Below are positions 57,380-59,990 of a stretch of 64,000 bases of DNA, piece by piece. This DNA comes from Pseudonocardia broussonetiae (GTDB taxonomy: Bacteria; Actinomycetota; Actinomycetes; Mycobacteriales; Pseudonocardiaceae): contig NZ_CP053564.1 in the NCBI RefSeq assembly GCF_013155125.1, positions 69,501-133,500 of the forward strand, written 5' to 3'. How positions within the stretch are numbered: the stretch's first letter is position 1; every line of letters starts with the position of its first letter. Below the pieces are notes generated by a model, which saw nothing but the letters and a program-made list of their open reading frames with translations, had not been told where the DNA came from and ran no database searches. The position numbers and the translations under genes were made by a program.

Positions 57380-57471
57380 GGGCGGACCGTACCCGCAAGA
57401 TCGTCGTGAGTGACCCGCGTCCGTATCGGGTAGTCGGGCGTCGACCGTTCCGACTCCCCAGGAGGCACCAG

Positions 57472-57858
57472 ATGGCACTCAGCGACGACGACATCACGAC
57501 CAGCGGAGACTCCGGCACGGAGGGCCCGGCCGACTCCGGCGCGGGTCAGGGCACGCCCGGGCAGTCCGACGGCGGCGCCGACGGCGGCGCCGACTCCGGC
57601 GCCGAGGGCCCGGCCGACTCCGGCGCGGGCCAGGGCACGCCCGGCCAGTCCGACGGCGGTGCCGACGGCGGCGCCGACTCCGGCGCCGAGGGCCCGGCCG
57701 ACTCCGGCGCGGGCCAGGGCACGCCCGGCCAGTCCGACGGCGGTGCCGACGGCGGCGCCGACTCCGGCGCCGAGGGCCCGGCCGACTCCGGTGCCGGCGG
57801 CGGCACCCCCGGCGTCTCCGACGGCGGCGCCGACGGCGGTGCCGACAGCGGTGCGTGA
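57472..57858 (+). CDS. Acidic Gly/Asp/Ala/Ser repeat protein, candidate substrate of the adjacent oxygenase
   Basis: 128 residues: a 16-residue leader (MALSDDDITTSGDSGT) and exactly four 28-residue repeats of the type EGPADSGAGQGTPGQSDGGA DGGADSGA. No Cys, no aromatic residue, no signal peptide, only acidic charge, so it must be disordered or Ca2+-ordered. AGGAGG stands 6 bp before the ATG. The next gene, a JmjC/cupin oxygenase, starts inside its last codons. Small proteins of this composition are, as I recall, sometimes labelled BatC in actinomycetes without evidence. Asp in the DGGADGGAD runs are plausible hydroxylation sites; this is inference. Confidence 0.8.
   Translation: MALSDDDITTSGDSGTEGPADSGAGQGTPGQSDGGADGGADSGAEGPADSGAGQGTPGQSDGGADGGADSGAEGPADSGAGQGTPGQSDGGADGGADSGAEGPADSGAGGGTPGVSDGGADGGADSGA
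57520..57855 (+). repeat. Four in-frame 84-bp tandem repeats
   Basis: Units at 57520-57603, 57604-57687, 57688-57771 and 57772-57855. Units 2 and 3 are identical at all 84 bases. Unit 1 differs from them by three synonymous changes. Unit 4 is diverged (GGG for GQG, V for Q) and closes the gene. The array is therefore growing or shrinking by whole units under selection for the protein sequence. Confidence 0.95.
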
Positions 57859-59110
57859 GCCTGCCCTCGAGGCCGGACGGTCCACCTCGGACCGTCCGGC
57901 CTCGGCTGTCCGCCGGGCCACCGGCCTGGACCTCGACGCGTTCGCCGACGCCCACTGGGGCCGCGCGCCGCTGCTGGTCCGGGGCGCGGACGCCGAGTCG
58001 TTCCGCGACCTGCTCGACCTCGACGGCGTCGACGAGCTGCTCTCCGCCCGCGGCCTGCGCACGCCGTTCCTGCGCCTCGCGCGCAACGGGTCCGTCGTCG
58101 GCTCGTCCTCGTTCACCGGCCCCGCCGGCGTCGGCGCGGAGATCGCCGACCAGGTGCACGACGACCGCGTCGCCGCCCTGTTCGCCGACGGCACGACCGT
58201 CGTCCTGCAGGCGCTGCACCGCCTGTGGCCCCCCGTCATCGACTTCGCGACGCGCCTGGGCGCCGAGCTCGGCCACCCCGTCCAGGCCAACGCCTACGTC
58301 ACCCCGGCCTCCTCGCGCGGCTTCTCCGCGCACTACGACGTGCACGACGTGTTCGTGCTCCAGCTCGCCGGGACCAAGCACTGGACGGTGCACGCCCCCG
58401 TGCACGCCGACCCGCTGCGCGACCAGCCGTGGAACGACCACGCCGGTGCCGTCGCCGCCCGCGCCCGCGACGACGAGCCGGTGATCGACACCGTCCTCGA
58501 GCCGGGCGACGCGCTGTACCTGCCGCGCGGCTGGCTGCACGCGGCGACCGCGCAGGGCGAGGTGTCGGCGCACCTGACCGTCGGCGTGCACGTCCTCACG
58601 CGGTACGCGCTGGTCGAGGCGCTGACCGCGCTCGTGGCCGGCGACCCCGCGCTCCGGGCGTCGCTGCCGCCGGGGCTCGACGTCGCCGACCCCGACGTGC
58701 TCGCCCCGCACGTCGACGACGTGCGCGACGCGCTGGTGACCGCGCTGGGCCGGGTGCCCGCGGCCGACGTCGCCCGGCGGGTGCGCTCGCGCGTCTGGAC
58801 CGGCAACCGCCCCGAGCCCGTGCGACCCGTCGCCGGCGCCGCGTTCGCCGACGGCCTCGCGCCCGGTGACGCCGTCCGCCTGCGGACCGGCCTCGGGCAC
58901 CGGATCGTCGAGCGCGGCGACCGGGTGGTGCTGGAGCTCGCCGACCGGAACGTCGACCTGCCGGGCAGCACCGCCCCGGCGCTGCGTGCGGTGCTGGACG
59001 GGACCACCCGTGCTGTGGGTAGCCTGCCGGACATGGACGAGGCCGACCAGGTCGTGCTCGTGCGCCGGCTGCTGCGGGAGGGCGTGCTGGTGCCGGCCGC
59101 TCCGGCATGA
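57851..59110 (+). CDS. JmjC/cupin-8 Fe(II)/2-oxoglutarate oxygenase (NO66/MINA53/RoxA type)
   Basis: 419 residues from a GTG at 57851 that overlaps the repeat gene's stop by 8 bp; no ATG or GTG exists closer to the conserved region. N-terminal WGRAPLLVRGADAESFRDLL and PASSRGFSAHYDVHDVFVLQ: His161-x-Asp163 plus His230 (EPGDALYLPRGWLHAA) are the iron ligands, and Lys177 in KHW fits the 2-oxoglutarate site. The C-terminal winged-helix region (VGSLPDMDEADQVVLVRRLL) is like that of the ribosomal-oxygenase group, which hydroxylates His or Arg of proteins. The likely substrate is a protein, and the coupled repeat protein is the obvious candidate. Confidence 0.88.
   Translation: MREPALEAGRSTSDRPASAVRRATGLDLDAFADAHWGRAPLLVRGADAESFRDLLDLDGVDELLSARGLRTPFLRLARNGSVVGSSSFTGPAGVGAEIADQVHDDRVAALFADGTTVVLQALHRLWPPVIDFATRLGAELGHPVQANAYVTPASSRGFSAHYDVHDVFVLQLAGTKHWTVHAPVHADPLRDQPWNDHAGAVAARARDDEPVIDTVLEPGDALYLPRGWLHAATAQGEVSAHLTVGVHVLTRYALVEALTALVAGDPALRASLPPGLDVADPDVLAPHVDDVRDALVTALGRVPAADVARRVRSRVWTGNRPEPVRPVAGAAFADGLAPGDAVRLRTGLGHRIVERGDRVVLELADRNVDLPGSTAPALRAVLDGTTRAVGSLPDMDEADQVVLVRRLLREGVLVPAAPA
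57868..57904 (+). terminator. Perfect 16-bp hairpin 10 bases after the repeat-protein stop
   Basis: CGAGGCCGGACGGTCC (57868-57883) and GGACCGTCCGGCCTCG (57889-57904) are exactly complementary around a 5-base loop. It sits inside the first codons of the oxygenase. It most likely works as an attenuator that gives many copies of the repeat-protein message for each full-length message; it could alternatively protect the 3' end of processed RNA. Confidence 0.75.
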
Positions 59111-59126
59111 CCCCCCGCACGCCCGC

Positions 59127-59990
59127 ATGACCGCCGCCCCCCGCTGCTCGGACCTGGCCGTCGACGACGCCCGCGCGGGCACCGCCCCGCCCGGCGACCG
59201 CTGGTTCCTCGTCGAGCACCCCGGGCCGTGGGGGCGCGTCGCGTTCGCGCAGTCCGGCTTCGGGCCCGCCGCGGTCACCGCGATGGACGCGTGGGCCCGC
59301 GAGGTCGGCGGTCGGGTGCTGCTGATCCGGCGGGCGGGACGCGCGACCGGCGGCCTCCGCCGCTGGTTCCGGGTGGACTCGCGGCCCGGCCACGAGGAGG
59401 TCCGGACGGGCACGTGGACCGACGACGACGGCCTCGTCGACGCCCTGCGCGCCCCCGGCACCGTCCACACCGGACCGCTGTTCCTCACCTGCGCGCACGG
59501 CCGCCACGACACCTGTTGCGCGGTCCGCGGCCGCCCGCTCGCCGCCGCGCTGGCCGCCGCCCGGCCCGCGGAGGCGTGGGAGTGCTCGCACGTCGGCGGC
59601 TGCCGCTTCGCCCCCTCGCTCGTGGCGCTGCCGCACGGCTTCGCGTTCGGCGGGATGTCGCCGCAGGAGGGGGTGGGGATCGCCGCCGCCTACGTCGACG
59701 GGACGGTGGACGCGGAGTTCCTGCGCGGCCGCTCGGTCCACCCGCCCGCCGTGCAGGCGGCGCAGCACCACGCCCGCCTCTTCACGGGGGTGCGGGGGGT
59801 CGACGCGCTGGCGCTGCGCTCGGTCACCGCACTCTCCTCGGGGACGTGGCGGGTGGTGCTCGGTGATCCCGACGTCGTGGTGGAGGTGCGGGAGAGGCGG
59901 GTGGAGGCCGGCCGCCCGCTCACCTGCTCCGCCACGGCGCCGGGGTGGATGCGGGAGTTCGACCTGATCAGTGTCGCCGCGAGCGGGTGA
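59127..59990 (+). CDS. Sucrase-ferredoxin-like thioredoxin-fold [2Fe-2S] protein
   Basis: 287 residues from the ATG at 59127. Apd1/sucrase-ferredoxin family: FLTCAHGRHDTCCAVRGRPL with Cys122 and Cys130 as cluster ligands, WECSHVGGCRFAPSLVALP with His155 and, at the position of the second His ligand of fungal Apd1, Cys159. The C-terminus is a small domain (VVEVRERRVEAGRPLTCSAT). Known members bind a 2Cys-2His [2Fe-2S] cluster. 16 bp after the oxygenase; a 7-codon open frame (ATG 59107) bridges the gap. It could supply electrons or iron to the oxygenase. Confidence 0.82.
   Translation: MTAAPRCSDLAVDDARAGTAPPGDRWFLVEHPGPWGRVAFAQSGFGPAAVTAMDAWAREVGGRVLLIRRAGRATGGLRRWFRVDSRPGHEEVRTGTWTDDDGLVDALRAPGTVHTGPLFLTCAHGRHDTCCAVRGRPLAAALAAARPAEAWECSHVGGCRFAPSLVALPHGFAFGGMSPQEGVGIAAAYVDGTVDAEFLRGRSVHPPAVQAAQHHARLFTGVRGVDALALRSVTALSSGTWRVVLGDPDVVVEVRERRVEAGRPLTCSATAPGWMREFDLISVAASG

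What the first reader, a model, noticed from the sequence alone, without database searches (positions are those of the whole stretch)
57472..59990. Candidate protein-oxygenation system: acidic 28-residue repeat protein + JmjC/cupin oxygenase + [2Fe-2S] thioredoxin-like protein
Seen: three genes in tight order. The first encodes a 128-residue protein of four 28-residue DGGADGGADSGAEGPADSGA-type repeats with no Cys, aromatic residue or signal. The second starts inside the last codons of the first and has the full HxD...H iron site of NO66/MINA/RoxA oxygenases. The third is a sucrase-ferredoxin-type Fe-S protein. Known: this oxygenase group hydroxylates protein side chains, and other 2OG oxygenases hydroxylate Asp or Asn in repetitive or EGF/ankyrin segments. 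Inference: the repeat protein is the dedicated multi-site substrate, with Asp as the likely acceptor, and the Fe-S protein supports the oxygenase. That would be a RiPP-like or Ca2+-binding-polymer system that I do not know to have been described.
Basis: partly seen in the sequence, partly recalled or inferred. Interest (0 to 1): 0.85.

Follow-up and report, generated by a model that had tools for sequence, protein, structure and literature searches.

The report
Aspartate-repeat protein with dedicated oxygenase
Many soil actinobacteria carry a small protein made almost only of aspartate, glycine and alanine, encoded right next to an iron enzyme that probably adds oxygen to its aspartates, and often next to an iron-sulfur protein; this looks like an undescribed protein-modification system, possibly for handling iron.

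Summary
At 57472-59990 of a Pseudonocardia-type genome lie a 128-aa Asp/Gly/Ala repeat protein (16-aa leader + 4 x 28), an overlapping PF08007 JmjC/cupin oxygenase with a complete HxD...H site, and a Suc_Fer-like [2Fe-2S] protein. The oxygenase start is GTG 57851; the Suc_Fer start is better placed at 59127 than at 58866.

The pairing is not local. In 296 genomes of the class, 38 of 39 with the repeat protein have the strong oxygenase (49 of 296 have it). An Asp-rich ORF lies just upstream of the oxygenase in 129 of 135 loci, against 55 of 1930 random anchors. Suc_Fer is at 107 of 135 loci. Repeat number, spacers and unit vary (DGGA, DATDTTDG, DADADST), but Asp stays.

Distant homologues of the oxygenase also follow short Asp-rich precursor-like ORFs (17 of 32 loci), some beside FhuF-type or Suc_Fer genes with DtxR-type iron boxes.

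Best reading: a dedicated multi-site Asp hydroxylation (RiPP-like) system. Iron binding is plausible but unproven; the DGGA cassettes themselves lack iron boxes. No paper in the library held the motifs searched. No chemistry was shown here.

The parts
57472..57858 (+). Asp/Gly/Ala repeat protein, 128 aa: leader 57472-57519, units 57520-57603, 57604-57687, 57688-57771, 57772-57855; proposed multi-site substrate
57851..59110 (+). PF08007 JmjC/cupin oxygenase, NO66/MINA/RoxA-like fold with C-terminal winged helix; GTG start overlaps the repeat gene by 8 nt; Fe ligands at 58331 (His), 58337 (Asp), 58538 (His)
59127..59990 (+). Suc_Fer-like [2Fe-2S] protein, probably thioredoxin-like; candidate cluster ligands Cys 59490, Cys 59517, His 59589, Cys 59601 (Asp in most relatives)
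57460..57465 (+). Shine-Dalgarno AGGAGG before the repeat gene; AGGAGGA is enriched upstream of the repeat genes (32 of 123 against 1.2 in shuffles)

Best explanation
This is a dedicated protein-oxidation cassette. The Fe(II)/2-oxoglutarate JmjC oxygenase binds the (probably disordered) Asp-rich repeat protein made just upstream in the same gene row, and hydroxylates many of its Asp side chains (most likely at the beta carbon). Shown: the three genes, their overlap, the enzyme's complete metal site and predicted NO66/MINA/RoxA fold, and the enzyme/repeat pairing across the class. Inferred: that the repeat protein is the substrate, that Asp is the acceptor, and that the product is a poly-hydroxyaspartyl chain. 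Also inferred, with lower confidence: that the added oxygens make hard-metal ligands, most likely for Fe(III), and that the [2Fe-2S] Suc_Fer protein acts as a reductase that releases the iron or keeps the oxygenase iron reduced. No conserved protease or exporter was found with the cassette, so the product is probably used whole and inside the cell.
For: (1) Co-occurrence: 38 of 39 repeat-positive genomes among 296 have the strong oxygenase (E < 1e-70), which 49 of 296 have (hypergeometric P 8e-37; genomes are related, so P is nominal). (2) Adjacency: Asp-rich ORF within about 330 bp upstream in 129 of 135 loci, 122 of them with DGGA-type repeats by pattern, against 55 of 1930 random anchors and 0 of 131 on the opposite strand. 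Three of the 6 negatives lie near contig ends, three are distant oxygenases. In the genus, 17 of 19 orthologues including the window. (3) Around the 135 loci the recurrent real genes are the repeat ORF, the oxygenase and Suc_Fer; the other large groups are antisense or out-of-frame ORFs lying over them (my reading of their positions). (4) Asp is the constant: 11.7-38% of the last 60 residues in 124 of 124 proteins, while Gly falls to 1.7% in one; distant members swap DGGA for DATDTTDG or DADADST. (5) Protein-level constraint: pooled pN/pS 0.32 in a 21-codon stretch of unit 1 of 17 Pseudonocardia copies, Asp invariant (the stretch was chosen by a pattern that fixes some residues, so the ratio leans low). 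(6) Invariant HxD...H and Lys, full-length NO66-like model, pLDDT 93.9. (7) Distant homologues of the oxygenase follow short Asp-rich precursor-like ORFs in 17 of 32 loci examined (judged by eye, no shuffled control).
Against: No mass-spectrometry or enzyme data. The nearest solved relatives hydroxylate His or Arg of ribosomal proteins, not Asp, and FIH, the known JmjC Asp/Asn hydroxylase (recalled), is a much weaker structural match. The window's genome has only one PF08007 match, so a ribosomal role of the same enzyme is not excluded. Two oxygenases (L131 = L183, and L132) have a different, non-repetitive acidic ORF in the repeat position; they pass the composition criterion but not the repeat pattern. 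L007 has the oxygenase without a repeat gene, and a TGA inside the match. Fifteen of the 32 distant loci showed no clear precursor. For iron: 0 of 135 cassette loci have an iron box (5 mismatches or fewer) within 1200 bp upstream.
Confidence: 0.65

Rival explanations
1. The oxygenase is an actinobacterial ribosomal oxygenase (RoxA/NO66-like) acting on a ribosomal protein; the repeat gene only couples its translation, or is a hitch-hiker.
For: Best fold matches are NO66, MINA and RoxA; the two genes overlap in the window; a single PF08007 match in the genome.
Against: The repeat ORF is constrained at protein level and kept in 17 family-level groups with very different sequence and spacing (from overlap to about 230 bp before the oxygenase match), so it is not just a coupling device. 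The strong oxygenase is in only about a sixth of the genomes (49 of 296), unlike a ribosomal housekeeping enzyme.
Confidence: 0.12
2. The system makes an Fe(III)-binding product: beta-hydroxyaspartates in the repeats act as bidentate ligands (iron buffer or store), and Suc_Fer is the ferric reductase.
For: Sister loci. Seven loci of family group f16, chosen because they have the short precursor TSRD[IV]TAGGDxDGTDxSSDFI, all have an S9 peptidase gene upstream (one member tested in Pfam) and a FhuF_C-type [2Fe-2S] gene downstream (together; two members tested in Pfam), with an iron box of 3-4 mismatches within about 100 bp before the fhuF-like gene. The three distant Pseudonocardia loci that have a precursor all have a divergent Suc_Fer gene with an iron box at its start (4-5 mismatches; 1, 5 and 4 of 3000 shuffles as good). 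Beta-hydroxyaspartate is a known siderophore ligand (recalled).
Against: No iron box at any of the 135 cassettes; Suc_Fer not found at 28 of 135 loci and absent altogether from 3 of 9 genomes checked; no iron-transport gene seen to recur beside the cassette; no iron box at the five Streptomyces-type sister loci. The iron-box consensus is recalled, not from a call.
Confidence: 0.33
3. The repeat protein is a hydrophilin-like stress protectant (very hydrophilic, Gly-rich, disordered), hydroxylated or not.
For: Composition: 38% Gly, 18% Asp on average in the last 60 residues, no Cys in 124 of 124; strong ribosome-binding sites.
Against: Does not explain the near-obligate oxygenase partner.
Confidence: 0.15
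4. A Ca2+-binding polymer of RTX type.
For: Many Asp and Gly residues.
Against: RTX-like GGxGxD followed by a hydrophobic residue in 1 of 124 proteins (L152); the repeats have almost no hydrophobic residues to build a beta-roll.
Confidence: 0.05

Closest known systems
Ribosomal oxygenases NO66, MINA and RoxA/YcfD (JmjC_2, PF08007)
   Same: Predicted full-length fold (JmjC barrel, helical part, C-terminal winged helix), HxD...H site; best PDB matches by structure and sequence (E 3e-24)
   Different: About 25% identity; paired with a repeat-protein gene instead of acting (as far as known) on ribosomal proteins; HxDxHD is invariant here, while NO66 reads HYDDIEAF at that place
RiPP pathways with cupin/JmjC hydroxylases (PbsQ, BpmG of the biphenomycin-like clusters, PMC12257519, passages seen)
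   Same: A cupin or JmjC hydroxylase next to a gene-encoded precursor
   Different: PbsQ hydroxylates an ornithine made in a short core; here the substrate is a 51-200 aa Asp-rich protein (lengths by predicted starts) without a conserved protease or transporter
PF08007 proteins with RRE-like folds reported in PMC12710340 (abstract, section 6 and passages seen)
   Same: PF08007 enzyme with an RRE-like domain in fish and algae; closest bacterial homologues said to lie in RiPP-like contexts
   Different: Section 6 names no Asp-repeat precursor, no Suc_Fer gene and no actinobacterial distribution
FIH (Asp/Asn hydroxylation in ankyrin repeats; function recalled)
   Same: JmjC-type 2OG oxygenase known to hydroxylate Asp in repeats
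   Different: Weak structural match (2cgo, TMq 0.34); substrate here is a dedicated low-complexity protein
Apd1/Aim32 and thioredoxin-like [2Fe-2S] ferredoxins (Suc_Fer, PF06999)
   Same: C-X8-C...H-X3 motif (Aim32 motif from a heading seen); nearest solved folds are thioredoxin-like [2Fe-2S] ferredoxins, though only weakly (Foldseek E 0.03)
   Different: Fourth ligand position is Asp in 103, Cys in 3 (window included) and His in 1 of 107, instead of the His of Aim32

Membership tests
JmjC/ROX oxygenase (PF08007) | HxD...H iron triad | tested here: met
   H159, D161, H228 are invariant columns of the 56-row alignment; PF08007 E 9.5e-28
JmjC/ROX oxygenase (PF08007) | JmjC barrel followed by helical part and winged helix | tested here: met
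   Predicted model pLDDT 93.9; NO66, MINA, RoxA are the best PDB matches over most of the length, TMq about 0.5-0.7
JmjC/ROX oxygenase (PF08007) | hydroxylates a ribosomal protein | not testable with these tools
   needs protein mass data
RiPP system | small precursor gene conserved next to the modifying enzyme | tested here: met
   129 of 135 loci against 55 of 1930 control anchors
RiPP system | conserved leader plus variable core | tested here: inconclusive
   LxDDDIxTT-type leader in several lineages and in deep branches (40 of 124 by a simple pattern), but other N-termini in Streptomyces, Arthrobacter, Nocardioides
RiPP system | leader protease and/or exporter in the cluster | tested here: not met
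   no such family recurs around the 135 loci; groups of 19 loci and fewer were not identified
RiPP system | modification demonstrated | not testable with these tools
   needs mass spectrometry
RiPP system | RRE-type leader-binding domain | tested here: inconclusive
   C-terminal winged helix in the model, but no RRE/PqqD match in Pfam for that part
Suc_Fer / bis-His [2Fe-2S] proteins (Apd1, Aim32) | PF06999 family | tested here: met
   E 4.8e-13, 50 bits against a cut-off of 34.9
Suc_Fer / bis-His [2Fe-2S] proteins (Apd1, Aim32) | thioredoxin-like [2Fe-2S] fold | tested here: inconclusive
   top Foldseek matches are Aquifex and Azotobacter thioredoxin-like ferredoxins (TMt 0.63-0.68) but at E 0.03 and worse, none at 0.001 or better; profile match E 0.0013 over 31 residues
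Suc_Fer / bis-His [2Fe-2S] proteins (Apd1, Aim32) | C-X8-C...H-X3-H ligands | tested here: not met
   last His replaced by Asp (103 of 107) or Cys (3, window included); His in 1
RTX Ca2+-binding repeats | GGxGxDx(hydrophobic) repeats | tested here: not met
   1 of 124 proteins

The most novel reading that the evidence does not exclude
A ribosomally made poly-beta-hydroxyaspartyl protein: one JmjC oxygenase hydroxylates ten or more Asp residues of an encoded (DGGA)n-type chain, giving an intracellular hard-metal (Fe3+) buffer whose iron is released by a [2Fe-2S] Suc_Fer reductase. It would be one branch of a wider actinobacterial family in which JmjC enzymes turn Asp-rich precursors into iron ligands, the short-precursor branches (with S9 peptidase, FhuF or Suc_Fer and iron boxes) being ribosomally encoded siderophore-like peptides.
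Probability: 0.3. Interest if true: 0.93.

Novelty: new variant of a known kind. Interest (0 to 1): 0.82.

Why it matters
It would give JmjC ribosomal-oxygenase-like enzymes in bacteria a dedicated, gene-encoded, highly repetitive substrate, and give a role to a protein family now called 'hypothetical' or 'BatC' where sources name it (Amycolatopsis, Micromonospora, Salinispora, Streptomyces and others). The prediction is directly testable by intact mass in easy laboratory actinomycetes. If the oxygens are metal ligands, it would add a ribosomal route to hydroxyaspartate chelators.

Tried and rejected
Iron box at the cassettes: not found (0 of 135 within 1200 bp at 5 mismatches or fewer; best matches like shuffles). 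SigR, ECF and sigma-70 patterns: no excess (patterns recalled). Conserved fourth gene (the divergent HTH_67, TerC, ABM, Trp_dioxygenase-like and DUF559 genes of the window): by tblastn only HTH_67 was seen again, at 1 of the 54 loci searched (L120). RTX-type Ca2+ repeats: rejected. Pfam match of the C-terminal domain to an RRE/PqqD model: none, so RRE identity is not claimed. Plasmid or phage carriage: 46 plasmid records (43 Streptomyces, 3 cyanobacterial), all under 60% identity; no phage match. Papers: searches for three DGGA motifs and six other core motifs gave 0 papers; JmjC/cupin + RiPP searches gave near cases only. 'Not described' means only these ten searches of an open-access library. 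NCBIfam, PHROGs and PADLOC were not searched; VIA-align was not obtained.

The composition counts left out five rows (L183, L184, L214, L154, L155), so 124 of 129. L141 (G203, the one weak repeat hit without strong oxygenase) was dropped from the 135 because it has no oxygenase. L197 is titled Bacillus and marked unverified; its oxygenase falls among Geodermatophilaceae. L138 is counted as DGGA by pattern but is of the mixed DATDTTDG type. L153 has an X (unread base) in the repeat. The oxygenase match of G310 (L136) is split in two frames. The 32 distant loci are a choice: 8, 20 fetched of the weaker matches plus L140, L142, L143, and one plasmid; 20-kb flanks were read only for 15 loci that had a precursor, so the other five distant Pseudonocardia loci were not checked for Suc_Fer or iron boxes. 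The whole-flank shuffles were scanned on one strand, the real sequences on both; those on both.
Full report
WHAT IS THERE. The window is part of a 7.29-Mb genome whose closest named oxygenase relatives are Pseudonocardia. Three genes run head to tail. The repeat gene (57472-57858) has a leader of 16 residues and four units EGPADSGAGxGTPGxSDGGADGGADSGA. The oxygenase gene starts at GTG 57851 inside its last codons and ends at 59110. The Suc_Fer gene starts 16 bp later at ATG 59127 and ends at 59990.

THE REPEAT PROTEIN IS REAL. In 60 genomes of the genus (own included), 19 have a close oxygenase orthologue (71-100% identity) and 8 a distant one. Of the 19, 17 have the repeat gene directly upstream on the same strand, with 1 to 4 units. 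The exceptions are L009, a contig edge, and L007, which lacks it. Leader and Asp positions are kept while third codon positions drift: pooled pN/pS 0.32 over a 21-codon stretch in 17 of 17 copies (the stretch was picked by a pattern that fixes some residues, so the ratio leans low). A search of 5.8 billion proteins with the profile of 16 copies listed 120 proteins at E <= 1e-5 among 8000 scored candidates. Those with a source's name are in Amycolatopsis, Micromonospora, Salinispora, Catellatospora, Streptomyces, Aeromicrobium and a few others, called 'hypothetical' or 'BatC'.

IT IS TIED TO THE OXYGENASE. Over the same 296 genomes of the class, the repeat profile rings in 39 and the oxygenase profile at E < 1e-70 in 49; 38 have both (P 8e-37, nominal because genomes are related). 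The exception, G203, is the weakest repeat hit (E 2.8e-4). The flanks of the 48 other strong-oxygenase genomes were read. Each of these 48 loci, and the window, has an Asp-rich ORF just upstream: DGGA-type in 45 of 49, another Asp repeat in two (L134, L135), and a non-repetitive acidic ORF in two (L131, L132). They come from 17 family-level groups. In all, 129 of 135 loci pass the upstream-ORF criterion, against 55 of 1930 random anchors in the same loci and 0 of 131 on the opposite strand. The six failures are three loci near contig ends (L195, L211, L215, with 94, 313 and 138 bases before the match) and three distant oxygenases (L140, L142, L143).

THE CASSETTE ENDS THERE. All-against-all comparison of neighbouring ORFs gives groups for the oxygenase (134 loci), Suc_Fer (101) and the repeat ORF (57 at that cut-off). 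Two further large groups (132 and 54 loci) lie over the oxygenase on the other strand or in another frame. The remaining groups (19 loci and fewer) were not identified. With a profile, Suc_Fer is found at 107 of 135 loci; of the 28 without, three have distant oxygenases and at least one (L163) is cut short. Of nine strong-oxygenase genomes without it at the locus, six have a PF06999 gene elsewhere and three have none. So the repeat gene, not the Fe-S gene, is the oxygenase's closest partner.

WHICH RESIDUE. In the last 60 residues of 124 proteins, Asp never falls below 11.7%, whereas Gly can fall to 1.7%, and Pro, Ser, Thr, Glu and His are absent from some. The alternative units DATDTTDG, ADTTDGGD and DADADST keep Asp every two to four residues and change the spacers. 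This is the main argument for Asp as the acceptor. A tree of 127 oxygenases puts the DGGA type on most branches and the other Asp repeats on deep ones (quick search, several long branches, so the deep order is unsure).

THE ENZYME. AlphaFold2 gives pLDDT 93.9 with a JmjC barrel, a helical middle and a C-terminal winged helix. The best solved matches are NO66, MINA, RoxA/YcfD and YxbC; FIH is far weaker. HxDxHD, Lys174 and the second His are invariant columns of the 56-row alignment. That Lys174 binds 2-oxoglutarate is recalled from the family, not tested. PMC12710340 (abstract, section 6 and passages seen) reports RRE-like folds on PF08007 proteins and bacterial homologues in RiPP-like contexts, which fits a peptide-holding role for the winged helix; the Pfam library gave no RRE match here.

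THE IRON-SULFUR PROTEIN. AlphaFold2 pLDDT 89.6. The nearest solved folds are thioredoxin-like [2Fe-2S] ferredoxins of Aquifex and Azotobacter, but weakly (Foldseek E 0.03, none at 0.001 or better; profile E 0.0013 over 31 residues). The motif is C-X8-C...H-X3-[D/C/H], with Asp in 103 of 107, Cys in 3 including the window, and His in 1. Passages of PMC8482512 give C-X8-C-Xn-H-X3-H for Aim32. All three alternatives can bind metal, so this position is probably a cluster ligand (inference).

WIDER FAMILY. Of 32 distant oxygenase loci examined (L021-L028, L140, L142, L143, L230-L250), 17 have a short Asp-rich ORF upstream, alike within groups (judged by eye, without a shuffled control): '...RRETNGDNDGSDxxSDF[IV]'-type in Pseudonocardia (3), 'TSRD[IV]TAGGDxDGTDxSSDFI' (7), '...SDGGGTGRSDGND'-type (5), and two single cases (L230, L249). 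The other 15 showed no clear candidate. For the seven loci of the second group an S9 peptidase lies upstream, and a FhuF_C-type gene downstream when searches are put together (two members tested in Pfam). An iron box of 3-4 mismatches lies within about 100 bp before the fhuF-like gene, where 20-kb shuffles reach 5-8. In the three Pseudonocardia loci with a precursor a divergent Suc_Fer gene has such a box at its own start. The five '...SDGGGTGRSDGND'-type loci have an aldo/keto reductase and no iron box. So JmjC + Asp-rich precursor + [2Fe-2S] protein recurs in at least three arrangements, two of them with predicted iron control. The DGGA cassettes have no such box.

MECHANISM AND CONFIDENCE. 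Shown: architecture, pairing, constraint, predicted fold and metal site. Inferred: oxygenase-substrate relation (about 0.8), Asp hydroxylation (0.65), metal/iron role (about 0.33). The cassette is RiPP-like in logic but fails the protease/exporter feature and has no shown modification, so it is not filed as a RiPP class. It is best called a new variant of gene-encoded-substrate oxidation by a ROX-type JmjC enzyme. Ten paper searches listed no description that I recognised; subscription papers are not covered.

Noticed in passing
L233, L234, L235, L237, L239, L240, L242 and L251-L257: Distant JmjC gene with a short precursor '...TSRD[IV]TAGGD[SN]DGTDxSSDFI', S9 prolyl oligopeptidase and FhuF_C [2Fe-2S] gene with an iron box: looks like a ribosomal, possibly siderophore-like, peptide cluster.
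   Followed up: partly
L023, L025, L026 / L263-L265: Second JmjC system in other Pseudonocardia: 36-38 aa precursor ending N[GS]DNDG[SG]DxxSDF[IV], divergent Suc_Fer gene, iron box at the Suc_Fer start.
   Followed up: partly
L236, L238, L243, L244, L246: Short precursors of the '...SDGGGTGRSDGND' type before a distant JmjC gene; an aldo/keto reductase follows in 5 of 5 of L258-L262 (same genomes); no iron box.
   Followed up: partly
L230:5757-5903 (S. clavuligerus plasmid pF1D18A): 48-aa ORF with an ADNDPSDPPIAIADPDPFDPVI tail before a distant cupin, S9 peptidase and ABC transporter downstream.
   Followed up: no
window 59601-59603: The probable fourth cluster ligand of Suc_Fer is Cys here, Asp in 103 of 107 relatives; an Asp-ligated [2Fe-2S] cluster would be unusual.
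   Followed up: partly
L131, L132 (L183): Two oxygenases of family group f30 (L183, the same contig as L131, is Arsenicicoccus) have a non-repetitive acidic ORF ending GPT[IV]EPGA in place of the repeat gene.
   Followed up: no
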